Source: Fimbriimonadales bacterium
Lineage (GTDB): Bacteria; Armatimonadota; Fimbriimonadia; Fimbriimonadales; GBS-DC
NCBI GenBank assembly: GCA_025998675.1
Contig: AP024673.1
Span: 124,001-188,000, forward strand
Length of the DNA stretch: 64,000 bases
Direction of reading: 5' to 3'
The position numbers were made by a program, and so were the translations under genes. Each line of letters starts with the position of its first letter. The first letter of the stretch is position 1. Below, piece by piece: positions 26,131 through 61,170 of this stretch. The notes under the pieces were generated by a model. The model saw only the letters and a list, made by a program, of their open reading frames with translations, did not search any database and was not told where the DNA came from.

Positions 26131-26277
26131 CTAAGTGTCTTTGCAGTGAGTTTCAGCGACTCCCCTGTCCGCGCATGCGCGTAATTTGGAGTGCTGAAGC
26201 GGGAGCTTCAGCCTCGCGGAAGCTCCGCTTCCGCATGCTGCACGCGCGTGTCACAATCCTCGTGCAAAGACACTTAG
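26131..26277. mobile_element. MITE-like element, family A copy 1 (TAAGTGTCTTTGC ends)
   Basis: 147 bp bounded by CTAAGTGTCTTTGC and its complement GCAAAGACACTTAG. The interior holds the GGAGTGC double hairpin (26188-26237) in the opposite orientation to the copy at 40812-40971, with which it shares the ACTCCCCTGTCCGCGCATGC flank. No coding capacity. Confidence 0.85.
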
Positions 26278-26359: not shown

Positions 26360-28889
26360 GTTTCAATTAGCACCCACCCTTGGGGGTGAATGCTACATGT
26401 GGACTTAACCCAAGTCGGGCAAATTTTGACCTGTCGCACATGGTTTCAATTAGCACCCACCCTTGGGGGTGAATGCTACTTAAAGAAAATCTTATAAAAA
26501 TGGGACAGAGATTCTTAGGTTTCAATTAGCACCCACCCTTGGGGGTGAATGCTACAACGGGCACGAAGCCCGCACACGCGCCCGCCTTCGGAGAGAGTTT
26601 CAATTAGCACCCACCCTTGGGGGTGAATGCTACGAGATGCCCTACCTTCCCGCCGAGGTCGAGGCGCGCCTCGGTTTCAATTAGCACCCACCCTTGGGGG
26701 TGAATGCTACAGGAGGATAAGCCTTATGAGCGTCTCCGAGAGAAGGCATGTTTCAATTAGCACCCACCCTTGGGGGTGAATGCTACAATCGTGATACCCA
26801 ACGCTTGGCGCATACGGCGGTTTACGTTTCAATTAGCACCCACCCTTGGGGGTGAATGCTACCCGCGAGGCAGCGGACTGCTGGTAAATCCCTGTTCTCC
26901 CACCGTTTCAATTAGCACCCACCCTTGGGGGTGAATGCTACTTTACCTGTACGAGCAGAAGGTCGTAGAGGATCTGCACAGGAGTTTCAATTAGCACCCA
27001 CCCTTGGGGGTGAATGCTACCAACGCCACCTTGCAGGAGTTGAAACCGTTCAGTCTGGAGTACGTTTCAATTAGCACCCACCCTTGGGGGTGAATGCTAC
27101 GTACCGTTGCACTTGCTCGATGCGTCTGCGAAGCATGGTCGCCGTTTCAACTAGCACCCACCCTTGGGGGTGAATGCTACGGCGTTGTGTCCAGCACGCA
27201 CTTGACCGTCTTCACGCTCATCTGTTTCAATTAGCACCCACCCTTGGGGGTGAATGCTACAAAGGCAACCTGGTTGTGCACGAACAAGGCGAGCGGTGTT
27301 TCAATTAGCACCCACCCTTGGGGGTGAATGCTACGATGTTTTGGATGTAATTTCAAAATCCATATCTTTTAAGTATGCGTTTCAATTAGCACCCACCCTT
27401 GGGGGTGAATGCTACTTATCCGCCTAAAGGCGGAGGAGTGCGTCAAAAACTTGTTTCAATTAGCACCCACCCTTGGGGGTGAATGCTACTTCAAGGCGGT
27501 GGGTGCCCGGCAGGATGCCTCCACCCTCCAGTTTCAATTAGCACCCACCCTTGGGGGTGAATGCTACGCTTAAAAAGGTGTACGGCGTCAATTGCTACCG
27601 TCTTGCCGTGTTTCAATTAGCACCCACCCTTGGGGGTGAATGCTACTGAAAGTTATAAGACAATTATGCCAAGCTTGTCAGGTTCGTTTCAATTAGCACC
27701 CACCCTTGGGGGTGAATGCTACAAAAAAAAAATAAATACGAGTCGGCTATACAGTATAAGTTTCAATTAGCACCCACCCTTGGGGGTGAATGCTACCCGG
27801 GGCCAGACCTACTTTAACTAGGAGGATGAATATGGCTCGTTTCAATTAGCACCCACCCTTGGGGGTGAATGCTACAATTATGTTGCCGCGCTTGCCCTCT
27901 TTGAGTGTTTGTACTGTTTCAATTAGCACCCACCCTTGGGGGTGAATGCTACGTCGGGGTATTCGTCGCTGCCGTGTTCAACTACGGCGGCGTTTCAATT
28001 AGCACCCACCCTTGGGGGTGAATGCTACGAGTTCACTTGCAGTAGCTGGACGTGCCTCCACGAGGTATGTTTCAATTAGCACCCACCCTTGGGGGTGAAT
28101 GCTACCTCGGAGGGGTTACTTACTGACCTGAAGCAGGCCAGTAAGGTCGTTTCAATTAGCACCCACCCTTGGGGGTGAATGCTACCTGGTCATTCTGTGC
28201 TTGTAACGGATCATCATCCTCTTAAGTTTCAATTAGCACCCACCCTTGGGGGTGAATGCTACTACACCTCTACGTAGCGCTCGCAAGTCGAGCACGGGGA
28301 GATTAGTTTCAATTAGCACCCACCCTTGGGGGTGAATGCTACATCCCCACTAAACTCACGATAATCACGAAAATCCCTACAAGTTTCAATTAGCACCCAC
28401 CCTTGGGGGTGAATGCTACCTGAGACAAGAGATTCCGATTCTGCGGCTGCGCGGAATCGGTTTCAATTAGCACCCACCCTTGGGGGTGAATGCTACAGCT
28501 TTCGTACAGGGGTGCGCGAGTCGATGATATGCAAGTACGAGCTGTTTCAATTAGCACCCACCCTTGGGGGTGAATGCTACACTTCACAGCTGCCGCGTTC
28601 CTGCACCAGTGCATACACTGGGTTTCAATTAGCACCCACCCTTGGGGGTGAATGCTACAACCGATTGGCACGCTGCCCCCGATTGGCGAGTCAAAATGTT
28701 TCAATTAGCACCCACCCTTGGGGGTGAATGCTACGCCCGACTACCCACCCAGTTATAAGACCTTCGAGATTCGTTTCAATTAGCACCCACCCTTGGGGGT
28801 GAATGCTACTAGCCACTTGGGACGAACGATTTCTCCATTCCGAGGATCACCTGTTTCAATTAGCACCCACCCTTGGGGGTGAATGCTAC
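26360..28889 (-). CRISPR. CRISPR array, 33 repeats and 32 spacers
   Basis: 37-bp repeats that begin GTTTCAATTAGC and end GGTGAATGCTAC on the plus strand, with spacers of 37-47 bp. All repeats I read are identical except the one at 27144, where base 8 is C. Read on the minus strand the repeat ends in ATTGAAAC, the classic 8-nt crRNA 5' handle of type I and III systems processed by Cas6, so transcription should run right to left with the leader at 28890 and beyond. The centre has a short stem (CACCC / GGGTG). No cas genes lie within the window, so the array is either an orphan or far from its cas operon. Confidence 0.98.
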
Positions 28890-29394
28890 GGTATAGTCTA
28901 CCTCATCACACCCCCCCTTTGTCAAGTCCTGCGCGCGCTTCTTAACAATTGACCCCCCGATTTGAACTCAACGCTTTGCGCGAACCTCGACTCGATTTGA
29001 ACTCAAGTGCGAATTTGGGGGAGGTTCGCGCAAAAAGTATCGTTGGGCGGCGGTTGGTGTGGGGGTGTGTTTTTGGGGTGTTTTTGAGTTCAGATTTAAG
29101 GGGTTGGTGTGGTGTTATTTGGGGGGTGAATTGGGTTCAGGTTCAACTATTTAGCGTGGCTAAGTGTTGCGCGAAGGTCAGTAGACGTTTGATTCAAGTT
29201 CAAGTGGTGTGGAGGTTCGCGCAGAGTTTAGCGTAGCTAAGGAGTTGAGGTGGATTGAGTTCAGGGTTTTGGGGTATGAAGTTGAAGTGATGCTTGAGGT
29301 TTGGGTTTGTGGGGTGTGGATTGGCGGGGGGTTCGCGCAAAGTTTAGCGTGGCTAAGGATTCGCCGGTGGGTTGCCTGCGTTTTGGGGCGCCGT
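28890..29394 (-). promoter_or_regulatory. Probable CRISPR leader, G/T-rich with iterated motifs
   Basis: About 500 bp, very rich in G and T on the plus strand, with no credible gene. Iterated elements: GGTTCGCGCAAAG (copies at 29023, 29214, 29330 and inverted at 28975-28987); TTTAGCGTGGCTAAG with a TTAGC/GCTAA mini-palindrome (29149, 29228, 29344); and many TTGAACTCAA/TTGAGTTCA-like words. A minus-strand TTGACA (28925-28920) and TAGACT (28900-28895) 19 bp apart point into the array. Leader identity is inferred from position and from repeat orientation. Confidence 0.55.
29214..29359 (+). repeat. Two direct 30-bp repeats in the leader region
   Basis: 29214-29243 and 29330-29359 both read GGTTCGCGCARAG followed by TTTAGCGTRGCTAAGGA, 116 bp apart. 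Partial copies lie at 29023-29037 and 29149-29165. Confidence 0.9.
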
Positions 29395-39590: not shown

Positions 39591-40814
39591 ATGAGAACGC
39601 TAACAGCAGTGGGGTGTATCGCGTTATCCTGCGCGTGTCTCGTTTCGTCTATTGATGCACAGAGCCTAACCTGGCTGGGCAGGTTGGGCGGGACATCGAG
39701 CAGCGCGAGCGGGGTTTCCGACGACGGCTCAGTGGTTGTGGGCACAACAGGCTCGCCGAACGGCATTCGCGCGTTTCGGTGGACGCCCAGCACGGGCATG
39801 CAGTCGCTCGGCGTGCTGGCGAGCGGCGAGAGTTTCGGGGGCGCCCTCTCCAGCGACGGCGCCGTGATTGTCGGGACCTCCGATGCGCCGAACTGGCGAC
39901 GCATCGCGTTCCGATGGACAGCCGTCAGCGGCATGCAGCCCGTGTTCAACAACAATCCCTACAATAGCGCTGCGGTAGATGTCTCGGCGAACGGCGACAG
40001 CATCGTGGTGAACCTGCGGTATTTCGACGGCAGCTCGTTTGTGGACTTCGCGATTTTCACAACGCCCGGCGGCGACTACACACTGAACCCGCCCGTCGGG
40101 AATGCGCTCTCCGCCGAACAGTGTTCCGCGGACGGTACAACGATCGTTGGCTCGATGACCATCTACCCCGCGCCGAGTGTCACGCGGCGCGCGTTTCGAT
40201 GGACGGCACAGGGCGGTATCCAGAATCTGGGCGCGCTGACGAACGCCGCTTTGGCCAATAGCCAAGCCTACTGCGTGTCGGCGGACGGTTCAATCATCTA
40301 CGGCTCGTCGGAACAGGGCAGCGGCGGCAATCGCGTGATGTTCCGCTGGACGCCAACCGAGGGGATGACCTCCACAGGCGCCGCGATGACGCCTGCGGAC
40401 ACAACAGCGGACGGCTCCATCGTTGTTGGTACGGATGCGGACGCGACGCGCGCAGTGCGCTGGACGCAGGCAGGCGGGATGGAAGATTTGAACACGACCT
40501 ACGCCGCGCTGATTCGCGCCGGGTGGCGATTGACCGATGCAACGGCAATCTCGTCCGACGGACGCTACATCGTGGGCGTCGGTCAAAACACAAGCGGCAC
40601 GCAAGCGGAAGCGTTCCTGCTGGACACGGGTTGCGGTGTGCATAACGGCGATGTGAACCTCGACGGCTGCGTGGACGACGCCGACCTGCTTGCGGTGCTG
40701 TTCGCGTTTGGCAATAGTGGCTCCAATCTGGGGCGCGTCGATGTCAACTGCGACGGCGCGGTGGACGACGCCGACCTGCTTGTGGTGCTGTTCAACTTCG
40801 GGCAGGGGTGTTAA
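39591..40814 (+). CDS. Secreted HAF-repeat protein with dockerin-like tail
   Basis: 407 residues from ATG 39591, signal peptide ending SSIDA-QS. The body has HAF-type repeats (ASGVSDDGSVVVGTTGS...AFRWTPSTGMQSLG), as in the gene at 29395. The C-terminus carries two DADLLxVLFxFG motifs and ends in Cys. TATAAT at 39539-39544. A strong GAGAGGAGGG ribosome site is better placed for a 26-codon overlapping frame at 39575. The stop codon TAA is the first three bases of a MITE-like element. Confidence 0.85.
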   Translation: MRTLTAVGCIALSCACLVSSIDAQSLTWLGRLGGTSSSASGVSDDGSVVVGTTGSPNGIRAFRWTPSTGMQSLGVLASGESFGGALSSDGAVIVGTSDAPNWRRIAFRWTAVSGMQPVFNNNPYNSAAVDVSANGDSIVVNLRYFDGSSFVDFAIFTTPGGDYTLNPPVGNALSAEQCSADGTTIVGSMTIYPAPSVTRRAFRWTAQGGIQNLGALTNAALANSQAYCVSADGSIIYGSSEQGSGGNRVMFRWTPTEGMTSTGAAMTPADTTADGSIVVGTDADATRAVRWTQAGGMEDLNTTYAALIRAGWRLTDATAISSDGRYIVGVGQNTSGTQAEAFLLDTGCGVHNGDVNLDGCVDDADLLAVLFAFGNSGSNLGRVDVNCDGAVDDADLLVVLFNFGQGC

Positions 40815-40971
40815 GTGCCTTTGCGCGAGAATTGCGACATGCATATGCAGCACCATCTTTATGGAGTGCGGAAGTGGAGCTTCCGCGAGGCTGAAGCCCC
40901 CGCTTCAGCACTCCAAATTACGCGCATGCGCGGACAGGGGAGTCGCTGAAAATTCGCTGCAAAGACACTTA
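40812..40971. mobile_element. MITE-like element, family A copy 2
   Basis: 160 bp from TAAGTGCCTTTGC to GCAAAGACACTTA (terminal inverted repeats). It carries the GGAGTGC double hairpin at 40863-40914. The element begins exactly at the TAA stop of the HAF gene, so it either brought the stop or landed on it. Confidence 0.85.
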
Positions 40972-47147: not shown

Positions 47148-49610
47148 TCACCCCATCCGCTTCAACAGCGCGATAGAGCCGTTCGGCAGGGCGATGCGGT
47201 CGGCGCTTTGATTCAGCTCCTGCGCCAGTGCGCCGCGCAAGCCCCGACACCAGGCGTTCTGCGGGAGGTCGGTCAGCGCCACCACCAGATAGTCGCGCGC
47301 CCGCGTGAGCGCGACATAGAGCTTGCGCAGGAGTTCGTCTTCCTCGCGTTGCTGGGCGTGTGTGTGCAGCACGCGCAACGGTACCGGCTCATAGGGCGTC
47401 GGGAGGTCGGGACGCGCCACCTGCAGCGCGACAATCCCGCGCTCGGCGTCTACCTCGATCTGCATATCGCGCCTGCGCGGGTAAAACGCGGTGTCCACCA
47501 CGAACACCACGGGGAACTCCAGCCCTTTCGCGGCGTGTACCGTGTAGAAGCGCACGACATTCGCGCTCTCTTCGTAGGTCGGGGCGTTGCCCTCGCGCTG
47601 CTCGAGACGGCTGGTGAGTTCCAGTTGCTCGGCGAAGGCGCGCGGGGCGACTGTCGGCTGCTCCAGCGCCATCGCCAGCAGTTTGCGCACATTCGCGACC
47701 GCCTGCCTGCCCCGTTCGCCCTGCGCGAGCAGCTTCGATTCGTACTGGCTGGCTTCCAGCGCGCGCGCCAGCAACGCGCCGACGCTCCATTCGCCCACAT
47801 GATGCGTCAGCGGCTCAAACCACGCCCAGAACGCATCCAGTCGTTCACGGTCCAGCGGGTCTAACTCGAGGTCTGCCTCCAGACACAGGCGCAGGGGCAG
47901 TTCGGCGTGTTCGGCGTGGAGCGTCAGCGCCATCAGCCCGTCGAGGCTCAGCCCCACCAGCGGCGAGCGCAACACAGCCGCCAGCGCGAGGGCGTCTTCG
48001 GGATCGCTCAGCGCGCGCAGCAGGTTCGTCAAGTCGCGCACCTCGTACTGCGTCCAGTAGCCGCGCCCGCCGCCGACCACATAGTACGGCGCGCCCACCG
48101 CGCGGAACGCCGCCTCGAACGCCTCCACCTTCGTGAACTGATGGAACAGCAACGCGAAGTCGCCGTACTGCGCGGGGCGCTCCTCGCCTGTTTCGGGGTC
48201 ATGCACGATCAGTCGCTGCGTTTCGACCCAGTGCTGAATCTGGCTGGCGACGAGACTCGCCTCGCGCGCCGAGTCGCGCTCCCTCATCAGCCAGACCTGC
48301 ACGCGCGGCTCTTCGGGCGAGGGCGCGGCGGGACGCATCGGCTGCAGGGTCAAAAACCGCTTGCCCCACAGATGCCCGAATACCTTCTCCACGAACGCCA
48401 GAATATCGGGGTGCGAGCGGAAGTTCGCCTGCAGGGGCACGAGTCGTCCATCATTCTGCTGCGCCTGATGCTGCCAGCTTTCGAACACGCGCGGGTCAGC
48501 GTAGCGAAAGCCGTAGATGGACTGCTGCGCGTCGCCCACCACCATCAGGCTGCCGCCCCCTGCAAGGATGTCGATAATCTGCGCCTGCAAGCCGTCGATG
48601 TCCTGCGTCTCGTCGACCAGCGTGTAGCGGAACATGCGCTGATAGCGGCGGCGCACGGTCGCCGACTCGCGCAGCAGTTGCAGGGCGCGGATTTGCATGT
48701 CGTCGAAGTCGAGCGCGCCGCGCGCCTGCTTGAGGGCTTCGTAAGCGTGCAGGTACTCGACGGTCAGCTCCAGCAGGGCGCATGCAATCTCGCGGGCGCG
48801 CGCCTCCAGATTCGCGTCGAAGTTAGCAAGCAGGCTCGCCATATAGTGAGCCGCCTCCTGCTGCTCAGTCGGCAGGTTCGCGAGGAGGACGCGCAGGTCG
48901 TCCAGCGTCGCGAGGTCGATGACGGTCGCCTCTGCAGGCGCGGCGGGCGTTTGCGTGCGGTGGGGGGCGTGCGCGTGCAACGCTTCACGCCCATAGTAGA
49001 GCGCCAGCGCGTCTGCGCTGGGGTAGGTCTGTCGCCACTGCTTCAGGTCGTGCGCGGTGTAGCCCTGATGGCGGGCGGCGTTCGCCACGCGCTGCACCAG
49101 CTCGTACAACGCCTGCAGGGGGTCGCCGCGCACGCTGTTGAGGTTCAGGTAGTCGGCGATAAGGTCAATCAGCGGGTCGGCTTCGAAGTCGCGCTCCTGA
49201 TGCAGCAGGTTCGCCAGCGCGCGATGGAACGCCTCGCGTCGGAGCTGATTCGCCGCGGGCGCGGGCAAAACGCCCGGCTCCGGGTCGATGCCTGCCTCGA
49301 AGGGGTTCTCCTGCAGGATGCGGCGACAGAGAGCGTGGACAGTGTGGATGTAGGCGTTTTCGATACGGGTGCGTGCGTCGCGCAGCCCGCGCTGTTCCAG
49401 CTTGCGGATGATGCGCGTTTTCATCTCGGCGGTGGCGGCGCGGGTGAAGGTAATCGTCAGGATGCTTTCGGGCGCGACGCCGCGCTCGCCGACCAGATGC
49501 ACAAACCGCTCGGTCAGCACGCCCGTTTTGCCCGACCCTGCGCCTGCGACGACTGCCAGTAGCCCGTCGCCATGCTCGATAGCCGCGCGTTGCGAATCGG
49601 TCCAGCGCAT
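47148..49610 (-). CDS. UvrD/Rep-family DNA helicase
   Basis: 820 residues from ATG 49610. Superfamily 1A motifs in order: Walker A AGAGSGKT (22-29), LTITFTRAATAEMK (Ia), VDETQDID (II), GDAQQSIYGFR (III), AAKGLEFPVVFVVD (V) and VALTRARDYLVVAL (VI). It unwinds DNA 3' to 5' in repair or recombination. It overlaps the mutL stop by one base (TGATG), so it may act with MutL in mismatch repair, as UvrD does in enterics. It lacks an evident C-terminal nuclease. Confidence 0.93.
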   Translation of the reverse strand: MRWTDSQRAAIEHGDGLLAVVAGAGSGKTGVLTERFVHLVGERGVAPESILTITFTRAATAEMKTRIIRKLEQRGLRDARTRIENAYIHTVHALCRRILQENPFEAGIDPEPGVLPAPAANQLRREAFHRALANLLHQERDFEADPLIDLIADYLNLNSVRGDPLQALYELVQRVANAARHQGYTAHDLKQWRQTYPSADALALYYGREALHAHAPHRTQTPAAPAEATVIDLATLDDLRVLLANLPTEQQEAAHYMASLLANFDANLEARAREIACALLELTVEYLHAYEALKQARGALDFDDMQIRALQLLRESATVRRRYQRMFRYTLVDETQDIDGLQAQIIDILAGGGSLMVVGDAQQSIYGFRYADPRVFESWQHQAQQNDGRLVPLQANFRSHPDILAFVEKVFGHLWGKRFLTLQPMRPAAPSPEEPRVQVWLMRERDSAREASLVASQIQHWVETQRLIVHDPETGEERPAQYGDFALLFHQFTKVEAFEAAFRAVGAPYYVVGGGRGYWTQYEVRDLTNLLRALSDPEDALALAAVLRSPLVGLSLDGLMALTLHAEHAELPLRLCLEADLELDPLDRERLDAFWAWFEPLTHHVGEWSVGALLARALEASQYESKLLAQGERGRQAVANVRKLLAMALEQPTVAPRAFAEQLELTSRLEQREGNAPTYEESANVVRFYTVHAAKGLEFPVVFVVDTAFYPRRRDMQIEVDAERGIVALQVARPDLPTPYEPVPLRVLHTHAQQREEDELLRKLYVALTRARDYLVVALTDLPQNAWCRGLRGALAQELNQSADRIALPNGSIALLKRMG

Positions 49611-51526
49611 CAGCTTCGCTTGAATCGGCGTTCGATCTCCTGCCAGGTCAGCAGCAGCGTGATGGGACGCCCATGCGGGCACAGGTACGGGTTCTCGGTG
49701 CGGGCGAGGTCTTCGATGAGCTTGCGCATTTCGGGCATGCTCAGCGGGTCGCCTGCCTTGACCGCCAGCTTGCACGAGGTCGTTATCCAGATTTGCTCGC
49801 GCGCGATGGGCAGCCGTTTGCTCACGGAGAGTTCCGCCAGTTCGTCGACAATGTCGCGCAGCGTCTGCACGGGGTCGCCTTTCAGCGCGGCGGGCACGGC
49901 GCGCACCAGGTAGGCGTCCGCGCCAAACGGCTCCAGTTCAAACCCAATCGCCTCCAGTTCGGGCAGTTTCTCCTGCAGCAGCAGCGCGTCGCGCCGACTG
50001 AGCTGCAGCGTTTCTGGGGTCAGCAGATGCTGTTTCGGGATGGGCAGCGCGCCGCGCCTGTAGCACAGTTGCTCGTACAGCACGCGCTCGTGGGCGACAT
50101 GCTGATCGATAATCACCAGCCCCTGCCGTGTGGAGGCGACGATGTAGGTGTTCTGCGTCTGCCCCAGAATGAACAGGTCTTCCAGCAGGTAGGCGAAGGG
50201 CAGGTGCGTCGTCTGCAGCGGTTCGGTTTCTATCAGCGGGGGCGTCTCTTCGGCGGGCGCGGGCGATGGCGCAGGCGCCGCGAGGCGCGCTGCACGCTCG
50301 AAGGGGTCTTCACTCGCTGTGGGGACGGCGGTCGCCTCAGACGGCGGTTCGGCGGCGGGCGGCTCGGGCGGCGTGGGCGATGCGTCCGTTTCAGGAGGCG
50401 CGGACGCCAGCCCGGCGCGCTGCAGCAGCATCTGGTGAATGACCGCTGCGTCGGGCGGGCGGGCAGGGGTGATGGCTGCGCCGCGCGAGGCGCTGGGCGG
50501 CAGCGCGCTGGGAATCATCCCGTGCTGCAAAAGCGCGGCGCGCAGCGCGTTCACCACCGCCTCGAACACCGCCTGCTCGCGCTGGAAGCGCACCTCGATT
50601 TTCGCGGGATGCACATTCACATCCACCTGGCGCGGGTCTATGCCCACCAGCAGCACGCAGGCAGGGTAGCGCTTTTCGGGCGTGAGGCTCTTGTACGCCT
50701 CATCCAGCGCGGCGGTCAGCGTCTTATTGCGCACGGGGCGCAGGTTCACATAAAAATACTGGTGCTGGCGCGTCGGGCGCGTCTGATGGGGCGGGGCAAT
50801 CAGCCCCCACACGCGCACGCCGTCGCGCTCATAGTCCACCTCCACCATGCCCTGCACCATCTCGCGCCCCCAGAGCGCGGCGACCGCCGTCAGCAAGTCG
50901 CCGTTGCCCGGCGTGAAGATAAGTTCCTGCCGTTCGTGAACCAGCCGAAACGACACATCGGGGTAGGCGAAGGCGTAGCGCGTCACGGTCTCCACGATGT
51001 GCCCCAGCTCGGTCGGCACGGTCTTGAGGAACTTCAGTCGGGCGGGCACATTATAAAACAGGTCGCGCACGGTAATCGTCGTGCCGATGGGCGCGCCCAC
51101 CTCCTCGACGCTTTTGAGTTCGCCGCCTTCCACCACGAGCCGCGTGCCCGTGTCTTCCTCAAACGCGCGGGTGAGGATTTCCATGCGGCTCACGCTGGCG
51201 ATGCTGGGCAGCGCCTCGCCTCGAAAGCCCAGCGTCGCGATGCGCATCAGGTCCGCGTCGGAGGCGATTTTGGAGGTAGCGTGCCGCTGCAGGGCGTTCA
51301 GCGCGTCCTCGCGGGTCATGCCGATGCCGTCGTCGCGCACGCGAATCAGTTTGCGCCCGCCCATCTCCGCCTCGACCTCGATTCGCGCCGCGCCCGCGTC
51401 GAGCGCGTTCTCGATGAGTTCCTTGAGCGCGGCGGCGGGACGCTCGACCACCTCCCCAGCGGCGATACGGTTCACCAGCTGCTCGTCCAGCGCGCGAATG
51501 GGACGGCGTTCAGGGCGTGTGCGCAT
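49610..51526 (-). CDS. mutL: DNA mismatch repair protein MutL
   Basis: 638 residues from ATG 51526. The GHKL ATPase is intact: LIENALDAGA (N-box), RVRDDGIGM, and GFRGEALPSIASV. The linker (about 350-450) is Pro/Ala rich. The C-terminal dimer domain has QHVAHERVLYEQL, where a DQHAxxE endonuclease motif would be DQHVAHE; so nicking activity is plausible. TACAAT is 10 nt from the ATG. mutS is not in the window. A longer open frame to 51787 is opposite other sequence and is rejected. Confidence 0.96.
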   Translation of the reverse strand: MRTRPERRPIRALDEQLVNRIAAGEVVERPAAALKELIENALDAGAARIEVEAEMGGRKLIRVRDDGIGMTREDALNALQRHATSKIASDADLMRIATLGFRGEALPSIASVSRMEILTRAFEEDTGTRLVVEGGELKSVEEVGAPIGTTITVRDLFYNVPARLKFLKTVPTELGHIVETVTRYAFAYPDVSFRLVHERQELIFTPGNGDLLTAVAALWGREMVQGMVEVDYERDGVRVWGLIAPPHQTRPTRQHQYFYVNLRPVRNKTLTAALDEAYKSLTPEKRYPACVLLVGIDPRQVDVNVHPAKIEVRFQREQAVFEAVVNALRAALLQHGMIPSALPPSASRGAAITPARPPDAAVIHQMLLQRAGLASAPPETDASPTPPEPPAAEPPSEATAVPTASEDPFERAARLAAPAPSPAPAEETPPLIETEPLQTTHLPFAYLLEDLFILGQTQNTYIVASTRQGLVIIDQHVAHERVLYEQLCYRRGALPIPKQHLLTPETLQLSRRDALLLQEKLPELEAIGFELEPFGADAYLVRAVPAALKGDPVQTLRDIVDELAELSVSKRLPIAREQIWITTSCKLAVKAGDPLSMPEMRKLIEDLARTENPYLCPHGRPITLLLTWQEIERRFKRS

Positions 51527-59223: not shown

Positions 59224-61170
59224 ATGGAACGGCAACTACAGAATCGGACGGATGGCGCAACCCCTAAGCATGAGCCACCAACTTCGCCCCATACCCCCGC
59301 ATGGGGACCCCACAACCCGCACCCGCTCTCCAAAATGAAGACCGAGCTGGTGTGGGAGGGCAAATACGACGAGTACGGCAACCGCCGCCCCGTCAAACTG
59401 CCCACCTCGCCCCTGCCCCTCCAACGCATCGAGACCATCGATGAACCCCGCGACCGACTGAAAGCGCAACAGCCCAGCCTGTTCGACGAAACCGCCTTCC
59501 ACCAGCAGGCACACCGCGACGACTTCCGCAACATGCTCATCTGGGGCGACAATAAACTCGTGATGGCAGCCCTGCTGGAACAGTTCCGCGGCAAGATCGA
59601 CCTGATTTACATCGACCCGCCGTTCGATGTGGGCGCCGACTTCACCATGCAGGTGCAACTGGGCGAGGATGCCGACCCCGTGCAGAAAGAGCAGTCCATT
59701 CTGGAAGCCGTCGCCTACCGCGACACATGGGGCAAAGGCACCGACTCCTACCTGCACATGATGTACGAACGGCTGACACTCATGCGAGAACTGCTCAGCG
59801 ATACGGGCAGTATCTATGTGCATTGTGATTGGAGGCTCACTGCATTACTGAGGCTGTGTTTGGACGACGTTTTTGGTGCAGAATCTTTCCAGAGAGAAAT
59901 AATCTGGCGGATCGGTTGGGTTTCTGGTTACAAGAGTGCAGCTTCCAACTGGATACGTAATCACGATACCATACTTTTCTATGTTAAGTCTCCCGATAGC
60001 TTTACGTTCAATAAGGAGTATATCCCCTATCCACCGGATTACCGTCGCCGAGGTGGTCAGGAAACAACAGGTAAGGGATACCCAATTGAAGACGTATGGA
60101 ATGCTAATCCTTTCGAATTTGCTTTGACGGGTGAAGATAGCTTAGACTCAATACAAATCAAGAGTTTTTCCACAGAGAAAACAGGTTTTGAAACTCAGAA
60201 GAACGAAAGCCTGTTGCGCCGCATTATCAAAGCCTCGTCCAACGAGGGCGACTTAGTGGCGGACTTCTTCTGCGGCTCGGGCACCACGCTCGCCGTAGCC
60301 GAGAAGCTGGGGCGACGCTGGATTGGCGCCGACCTCGGACGCTACGCCATCCACACCTCCCGCAAACGGCTCATCCAAGTCCAGCGCGAACTGCACGAGC
60401 AGAACAAGCCCTACCGCGCATTCGATGTCTACAATCTGGGGCGCTACGAACGCCAGTGGTGGCAGATAGACCGCCTGAAAGGTTATGACGAGGAGCATCG
60501 CCGGGTCGTCCTGCGCTTTTACAAAGCGGCACCGCTGGAGAACCCTCCCAGCCCGCTTCTGCATGGCAAGAAGGGCACCGCCTATGTGCATGTCGACCAG
60601 ATTGACACCCTCTTCACAGAGCAGGAGTTGCGCGCCGTTGCCCAAGCGGCTCACCAGGCGGGCGCACGCGAACTGCACTGCCTCGCCTGGGAGTTCGAGA
60701 TGGAGCTCGGGCGCAAGAAAGAGGCGGTGGAGGCAGAGACCGGGCTGACCATCCGCCTGAAATATATCCCCCGCGAGATTATGGAGCCGAACCGCAACGA
60801 GGTGCAGTTCTTCGAGGCGGGCTACCTCGAGGCGAAGGCGGTTCAGCACGACGGCAAGGTCGATGTCCAGCTGGTGAACTTTGTGCCTGCTTTGGCGGAG
60901 GCGCCCGAAAAGGAGATGGCGGCTCTGCGCGAGCGTGCCGTTAAATCGCCCTTCGATTTCATCGACTTCTGGGCGGTCGACTTCGAGTGGCGCGAGGGCA
61001 AGCCGTTCGAACACCACTGGCAGGACTTTCGCACCCGCAAAGACCGCTCGCTGAAGACCTGCACCGACATCGGCTGGCAGTATCAGATACCGGGTAAACA
61101 CCAGATTTGCGTCAAGGTGATCGATGTCTTCGGGGTCGACACCACCACCGTGATTGAAGTGGAGGGATAA
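59224..61170 (+). CDS. Type III restriction-modification DNA methyltransferase (Mod)
   Basis: 648 residues. Beta-class order: motif IV DPPF (131-134, in LIYIDPPFDVG), a target recognition region, then motif I FFCGSGTT (near 348). Predicted to methylate adenine at N6. The stretch 59829-60210 (residues about 202-329) is much richer in A and T and uses different codons than both flanks, as expected for a swapped recognition domain. GGAGG precedes the ATG. The res gene follows after 3 bp. Confidence 0.93.
   Translation: MERQLQNRTDGATPKHEPPTSPHTPAWGPHNPHPLSKMKTELVWEGKYDEYGNRRPVKLPTSPLPLQRIETIDEPRDRLKAQQPSLFDETAFHQQAHRDDFRNMLIWGDNKLVMAALLEQFRGKIDLIYIDPPFDVGADFTMQVQLGEDADPVQKEQSILEAVAYRDTWGKGTDSYLHMMYERLTLMRELLSDTGSIYVHCDWRLTALLRLCLDDVFGAESFQREIIWRIGWVSGYKSAASNWIRNHDTILFYVKSPDSFTFNKEYIPYPPDYRRRGGQETTGKGYPIEDVWNANPFEFALTGEDSLDSIQIKSFSTEKTGFETQKNESLLRRIIKASSNEGDLVADFFCGSGTTLAVAEKLGRRWIGADLGRYAIHTSRKRLIQVQRELHEQNKPYRAFDVYNLGRYERQWWQIDRLKGYDEEHRRVVLRFYKAAPLENPPSPLLHGKKGTAYVHVDQIDTLFTEQELRAVAQAAHQAGARELHCLAWEFEMELGRKKEAVEAETGLTIRLKYIPREIMEPNRNEVQFFEAGYLEAKAVQHDGKVDVQLVNFVPALAEAPEKEMAALRERAVKSPFDFIDFWAVDFEWREGKPFEHHWQDFRTRKDRSLKTCTDIGWQYQIPGKHQICVKVIDVFGVDTTTVIEVEG

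What the first reader, a model, noticed from the sequence alone, without database searches (positions are those of the whole stretch)
26360..28889. Cas-less CRISPR array with 33 nearly identical repeats
Only one repeat (27144) differs, by one base, so the array is well kept, yet no cas gene lies within 26 kb on the left or 35 kb on the right. The minus-strand repeat ends in ATTGAAAC, the type I/III handle. It must rely on Cas proteins encoded elsewhere.
Basis: partly seen in the sequence, partly recalled or inferred. Interest (0 to 1): 0.55.

Follow-up and report, generated by a model that had tools for sequence, protein, structure and literature searches.

The report
Cas-less array served from afar
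The CRISPR memory array is real, and the genes that would write and use it lie elsewhere in the same bacterial genome; the arrangement is a known one, except that the usual RNA-cutting gene Cas6 could not be found.

Summary
Confirmed: 33 repeats of 37 nt at 26360-28889, 32 identical, 32 unique spacers of 37-47 nt. No cas gene was found in the window (58 ORFs).

It is one of six arrays in this 2.99-Mb genome that share the repeat and a 353-473-bp leader. One of them starts 486 bp after cas2, beside the genome's only detected cas1. Two type III effector loci are present: III-D, 44 kb left of the array, and III-B cmr1-6, 1.05 Mb away.

Best reading: a scattered type III immune system in which one Cas1-Cas2 writes all arrays, much as in Thermus and Pyrococcus.

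Unexplained: five searches found no Cas6, and none of the 6 congeneric genomes with this repeat, this one included, has one. Yet the repeat folds into a stem followed by the 8-nt tag AUUGAAAC. A divergent Cas6 or another nuclease must cut it. Cas5d and type I effectors were not searched for genome-wide. No protospacer was found. Novelty is low; the missing Cas6 is the lead.

The parts
26360..28889 (-). CRISPR array: 33 repeats of 37 nt and 32 unique spacers of 37-47 nt; guide strand minus, newest end at the right
   Evidence: orientation from degenerate terminal repeats of sister arrays and the shared leader
28890..29362 (-). Leader module of about 473 bp, 95% identical to the leader between cas2 and the array at 739742, 97-99% identical to those of two further arrays
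   Evidence: the simple promoter scan called nothing here
27144..27180 (-). The single variant repeat, one base different
27490..27530 (-). Spacer related to a spacer of the array at 2710897 (32 of 35 bases, same strand); all three differences fall on third codon positions of an open plus-strand frame
   Evidence: codon reading done by eye from the letters
27797..27838 (-). Spacer sharing 24 identical bases, same strand, with another spacer of the array at 2710897

Best explanation
The array is one of six dispersed memory banks of a single scattered type III CRISPR-Cas immune system. One Cas1-Cas2 pair, at 737879-739255 of the genome, adds spacers at the shared leader of the arrays (inferred from identical repeat and leader). 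The array is transcribed from its right-hand leader on the minus strand (inferred). The transcript is cut just 3' of the repeat hairpin to give guides starting AUUGAAAC (inferred from the fold; the cutting enzyme is not identified). The guides load into a type III-D complex (97707-105997) and/or a type III-B complex (1201532-1207867), which recognise complementary phage transcripts (established for type III systems, inferred here).
For: Identical repeat at six sites, 120 copies within 3 mismatches, all accounted for by the six sites. Shared leader, 86-99% identical to the window's, beginning 13 bp after the cas2 stop in the cas-adjacent copy. Only one Cas1 in the genome, in that place. Complete III-B set and III-D set with Cas10, Csx10, Csm2, Csm3-like, Csx19, Csx21. 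No second repeat type is needed. Repeat fold with 8-nt tag. Two spacers share targets with spacers of another array, with differences, so both arrays took up spacers independently. Published parallels: PMC7515739, passages.
Against: No Cas6 found. No protospacer found. No promoter called in the leader. In Thermus some arrays with the identical repeat took up no spacers, so a shared leader does not prove activity. The strand-bias test for antisense guides was weak here and not reproduced in congeners. The Cas1 scores best with a type I-C model, so a type I effector elsewhere is not excluded.
Confidence: 0.82

Rival explanations
1. The array is a silent relic: it was copied away from cas1-cas2 and is neither extended nor expressed any more.
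For: It lies 585 kb from cas1-cas2. In Thermus some type III arrays with the identical repeat took up no spacers (PMC7515739, passages). No protospacers were found. Two sister sites hold only 2 and 3 repeats.
Against: 32 of 33 repeats are identical even at the old end, the leader is 97-99% identical to two other arrays, and 32 unique spacers are held.
Confidence: 0.08
2. The array mainly serves a type I system elsewhere in the genome, for example I-C-like with Cas5d as the cutting enzyme; the type III loci only borrow its guides or not even that.
For: The Cas1 passes the curated cut-off of the type I-C Cas1 model (404.6 against 385 bits). Cas5d can cut pre-crRNA in type I-C (PMC11127173, passage).
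Against: No type I gene beside cas1-cas2; only one Cas1 in the genome; two type III effector loci are present.
Confidence: 0.1
3. crRNAs are cut by a nuclease that is not Cas6, a host RNase or an effector subunit that recognises the repeat hairpin. This concerns one step only and is compatible with the best explanation.
For: Five negative searches in this genome; 0 of 6 genomes of the genus with this repeat have a TIGR01877 hit, 3 of the other 7 do. The hairpin is kept in congeners with one double-sided change. RNase E does this job in a cyanobacterial III-Bv system (PMC10989914, passage).
Against: The 8-nt tag and stem position are those of Cas6 (PMC3575380 passages, where RNase E-type maturation left 13 nt). 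Cas6 sequences are very diverse, so a divergent one may be missed; two of the five searches had no positive control. Several of the six genomes are draft.
Confidence: 0.35

Closest known systems
Type III arrays of Thermus thermophilus HB27c (PMC7515739, passages read)
   Same: Several scattered arrays with identical repeats, shared by two type III subtypes, with cas1 away from most of them.
   Different: There III-A and III-B, in a strain that also has I-B and I-C systems; only two arrays took up spacers. Here III-D and III-B, no other repeat type looked for, and no Cas6 found.
Pyrococcus furiosus arrays (same paper, passage)
   Same: One adaptation locus and several arrays with identical repeats that feed more than one effector.
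   Different: There I-A, I-G and III-B share the guides, cut by a Cas6 (PMC11127173, passage); here no type I effector and no Cas6 is known.
Fimbriimonadales bacterium KatS3mg016 locus (L049)
   Same: Cas1 67% and Cas2 81% identical, leader 75% identical over 305 bp, repeat differs at 2 of 37 bases, cas1-cas2 directly before leader and array.
   Different: Spacers average 31 nt against 41 nt here; its effector loci were not looked for.
Synechocystis 6803 CRISPR3, III-Bv, cut by RNase E (PMC10989914 and PMC3575380, passages)
   Same: Type III guides made without Cas6.
   Different: 13-nt tag there; here the fold leaves 8 nt, the Cas6 spacing. The enzyme here is unknown.

Membership tests
CRISPR array | Identical short repeats separated by unique spacers of similar length | tested here: met
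   33 repeats, 32 unique spacers of 37-47 nt
CRISPR array | Leader at one end, shared among arrays written by the same Cas1-Cas2 | tested here: met
   About 473 bp shared with 4 of the 5 other arrays and 353 bp with the fifth
Array of a type III system served in trans | Same repeat beside cas1-cas2 in the same genome | tested here: met
   Array at 739742-741726, 486 bp after cas2
Array of a type III system served in trans | Type III effector (Cas10 with RAMP proteins) in the same genome | tested here: met
   III-D-like set and III-B set
Array of a type III system served in trans | Guides from this array found in the effector complexes | not testable with these tools
   Needs RNA data
Cas6-processed array | Stem followed by an 8-nt 3' tag | tested here: met
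   12-bp stem, 4-nt loop, 8 nt AUUGAAAC, -18.9 kcal/mol, z -4.24
Cas6-processed array | A cas6 gene in the genome | tested here: not met
   Three Cas6 models with positive controls, one blast and one profile, all 0; a very divergent Cas6 is not excluded
Type I-C system | Cas3, Cas5d, Cas8c and Cas7 with cas4-cas1-cas2 | tested here: inconclusive
   Only the Cas1 is I-C-like; no effector gene among the neighbours scanned; not searched genome-wide

The most novel reading that the evidence does not exclude
A branch of this genus runs a multi-array type III immune system without Cas6: another nuclease cuts the Cas6-shaped repeat hairpin and leaves the classical 8-nt tag. This would explain why all 6 genomes of the genus with this repeat lack a Cas6 while 3 of the 7 others carry one.
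Probability: 0.3. Interest if true: 0.55.

Novelty: new member of a known kind. Interest (0 to 1): 0.3.

Why it matters
Taken alone the array is ordinary: type III arrays away from their cas genes are documented. It is a clean case of one cas1-cas2 pair, six arrays and two effectors in a one-contig genome. It also poses a testable question: what cuts a Cas6-shaped repeat when no Cas6 is found. If it is a host nuclease, that would add to the few known cases of guide maturation without a Cas protein.

Tried and rejected
Spacer hairpins: I suspected that spacers are rich in hairpins, as reported for type III adaptation (PMC9048733, passages). First run: 19 of 115 spacers at p<0.05 against 18 of 300 random genome pieces (counts converted from the printed fractions). 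Repeat run: 17 of 117 against 48 of 600, p 0.033; in congeners 10 of 93, p 0.42. Too weak to claim.

Spacer strand bias: 73:42, then 71:46 with another training set; congeners 39:54; open-frame test 34:29. Inconclusive.

Protospacers: none in phages or plasmids for the window array (the other arrays were not searched there) and none for three of four patterns in viral contigs. The one hit (L076) was chance: 15-21 mismatches at best to four spacers.

The 589-aa ORF before cas1 is an ABC-exporter-like protein, not a cas gene. A second PF22335 hit at 1641763 (1237-aa frame, E 1e-5) was not resolved.

Papers on CRISPR in this group, listings only: 'Fimbriimonadales' + CRISPR gave 1 paper, 'Armatimonadetes' + CRISPR + type III gave 6; by title none describes this system. 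They were not read.

Full report
Observation. The window holds 33 copies of a 37-nt repeat at 26360-28889; 32 are identical and the one at 27144 differs by one base. The 32 spacers are 37-47 nt and all different. No cas family was found among 58 distinct ORFs of the window scanned against PADLOC (for one helicase only the best 25 of 37 families were shown). Genome-wide models for Cas1, the Cas10 palm, RAMPs and Cas6 gave no place inside the window.

The sister arrays. The genome is one contig of 2,987,958 bases, 98.85% complete; the window is 124001-188000. The same repeat occurs at five other places: 739742-741726 (26 repeats), 1874737-1874847 (2), 2117958-2118154 (3, the middle one with a small deletion), 2397160-2398765 (21) and 2710897-2713895 (39). 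The 120 copies within 3 mismatches that the genome search counted are all accounted for by these six sites. Three sister arrays end in a degenerate repeat at the end that is the left end here, so the guide strand of the window array is minus and its leader is at the right.

The leader and cas1-cas2. A leader of about 473 bp is shared: the window's is 95% identical to that of the cas-adjacent array, 97% and 99% to two others, 88% to the one at 2117958; the array at 1874737 keeps about 353 bp at 86%. In the array at 739742 this leader begins 13 bp after the cas2 stop. cas1 is at 737879-738946 and cas2 at 738959-739255. It is the only Cas1 found in the genome. Its best model is the type I-C Cas1, over the cut-off.

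Effectors. At 97707-105997, 44 kb left of the array and 18 kb outside the window, lies a type III-D-like set: Cas10, five RAMP proteins including Csx10/Cas5, Csm2/Cas11, Csx19 and Csx21. At 1201532-1207867 lies a III-B set: Cmr1, Cas10/Cmr2, Cmr3, Cmr4, Cmr5 and Cmr6. Both Cas10 sequences contain GGDD (read; its link to cyclic oligonucleotide synthesis is recalled). Neither locus carries the repeat.

Relatives. The nearest Cas1 proteins, 64-69% identical, come from Fimbriimonadales or other Armatimonadota metagenome genomes: 6 loci confirmed of 25 candidate stretches. In one, L049, cas1-cas2 are followed by a related leader and 42 repeats that differ at 2 bases. Of 41 genomes searched, this one included, 6 carry the repeat within 3 mismatches, all in one genus of 13 genomes.

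The missing Cas6. The repeat RNA folds into a 12-bp stem with a 4-nt loop followed by exactly 8 nt, AUUGAAAC. Among 5 repeat variants 91.7% of cells pair and one pair changes on both sides; this is thin support, since 44 of 500 shuffles do as well and the two outermost pairs are broken in some variants. The shape is the one that Cas6 usually cuts. Yet PF01881, PF10040, TIGR01877, a congener's Cas6 and an 8-row Cas6 profile find nothing in the genome; the last two had no positive control. With TIGR01877, 0 of the 6 repeat-bearing genomes of the genus have a hit and 3 of the other 7 do. PF10040 gave only a weak hit to one of these known Cas6 proteins, so it is insensitive here. Beside one of the three Cas6 genes a protein shows a weak Cas8b1 resemblance below the cut-off. 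A divergent Cas6 and a different nuclease both remain open. In print, most type III systems are said to borrow Cas6 from other loci (PMC12669027, passage), and RNase E replaces it in one cyanobacterial system (PMC10989914, passage).

Spacers. Two window spacers are related to two spacers of the array at 2710897, on the same strand: 32 of 35 and 24 of 24 bases. In the first pair all three differences fall on third codon positions of an open plus-strand frame, so that guide would be antisense to such a gene; this is one case, read by eye. No source element was found. Wider tests of strand bias and hairpin content were weak here and absent in congeners.

How it works, with status. Shown: the array, the shared repeat and leader, one cas1-cas2, two type III effector loci, no cas in the window. 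Inferred: Cas1-Cas2 writing the arrays in trans, transcription from the right-hand leader (no promoter was called), cutting after the stem, use by III-D and/or III-B. Not known: the cutting enzyme, and which effector uses the guides. Not searched genome-wide: Cas3, Cas5d, Cas8, Cas9 and other class 2 effectors.

Comparison. Thermus thermophilus HB27c has several scattered arrays with identical repeats shared by III-A and III-B, and Pyrococcus furiosus has one adaptation locus for several arrays (PMC7515739, passages). The window array is a new member of a known kind.

Noticed in passing
window 26132-26276 and 40812-40971; L023 7767-7926; L026 9009-9169; L025 12595-12700; L077 10190-10295: A small palindromic, MITE-like element (ends TAAGTGTCTTTGCA / TGCAAAGACACTTA): 20 merged hits in 316 kb of this genome, and 5 of the 6 arrays have one within 100 bp of their trailer end, one overlapping the last repeat; two of the five share a 106-bp variant and look like copies of each other.
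   Followed up: partly
L049, L078, L079, L063, L064 against the window array: Mean spacer length differs between close relatives with nearly the same repeat and leader: 41 nt here and in G001, 33-36 nt in G004 and G010, 31 nt in L049.
   Followed up: no
genome 1641763-1641993 (L031): A second Cas10 palm-domain hit (E 1e-5) in a 1237-aa frame with no RAMP hit near it; perhaps a GGDEF-type protein.
   Followed up: no
L027 10536-10697: Two neighbouring repeat-spacer units carry the same 44-nt spacer, a duplication within the array.
   Followed up: no
window 59224-61167 and 47151-49775: A type III restriction-type methyltransferase (E 1.9e-297) and a UvrD-like helicase that resembles GajB models.
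   Followed up: no
L051 11398-11424: The metagenome contig with cas1-cas2 ends inside leader-like sequence, as expected if the leader is multi-copy in that genome too.
   Followed up: no
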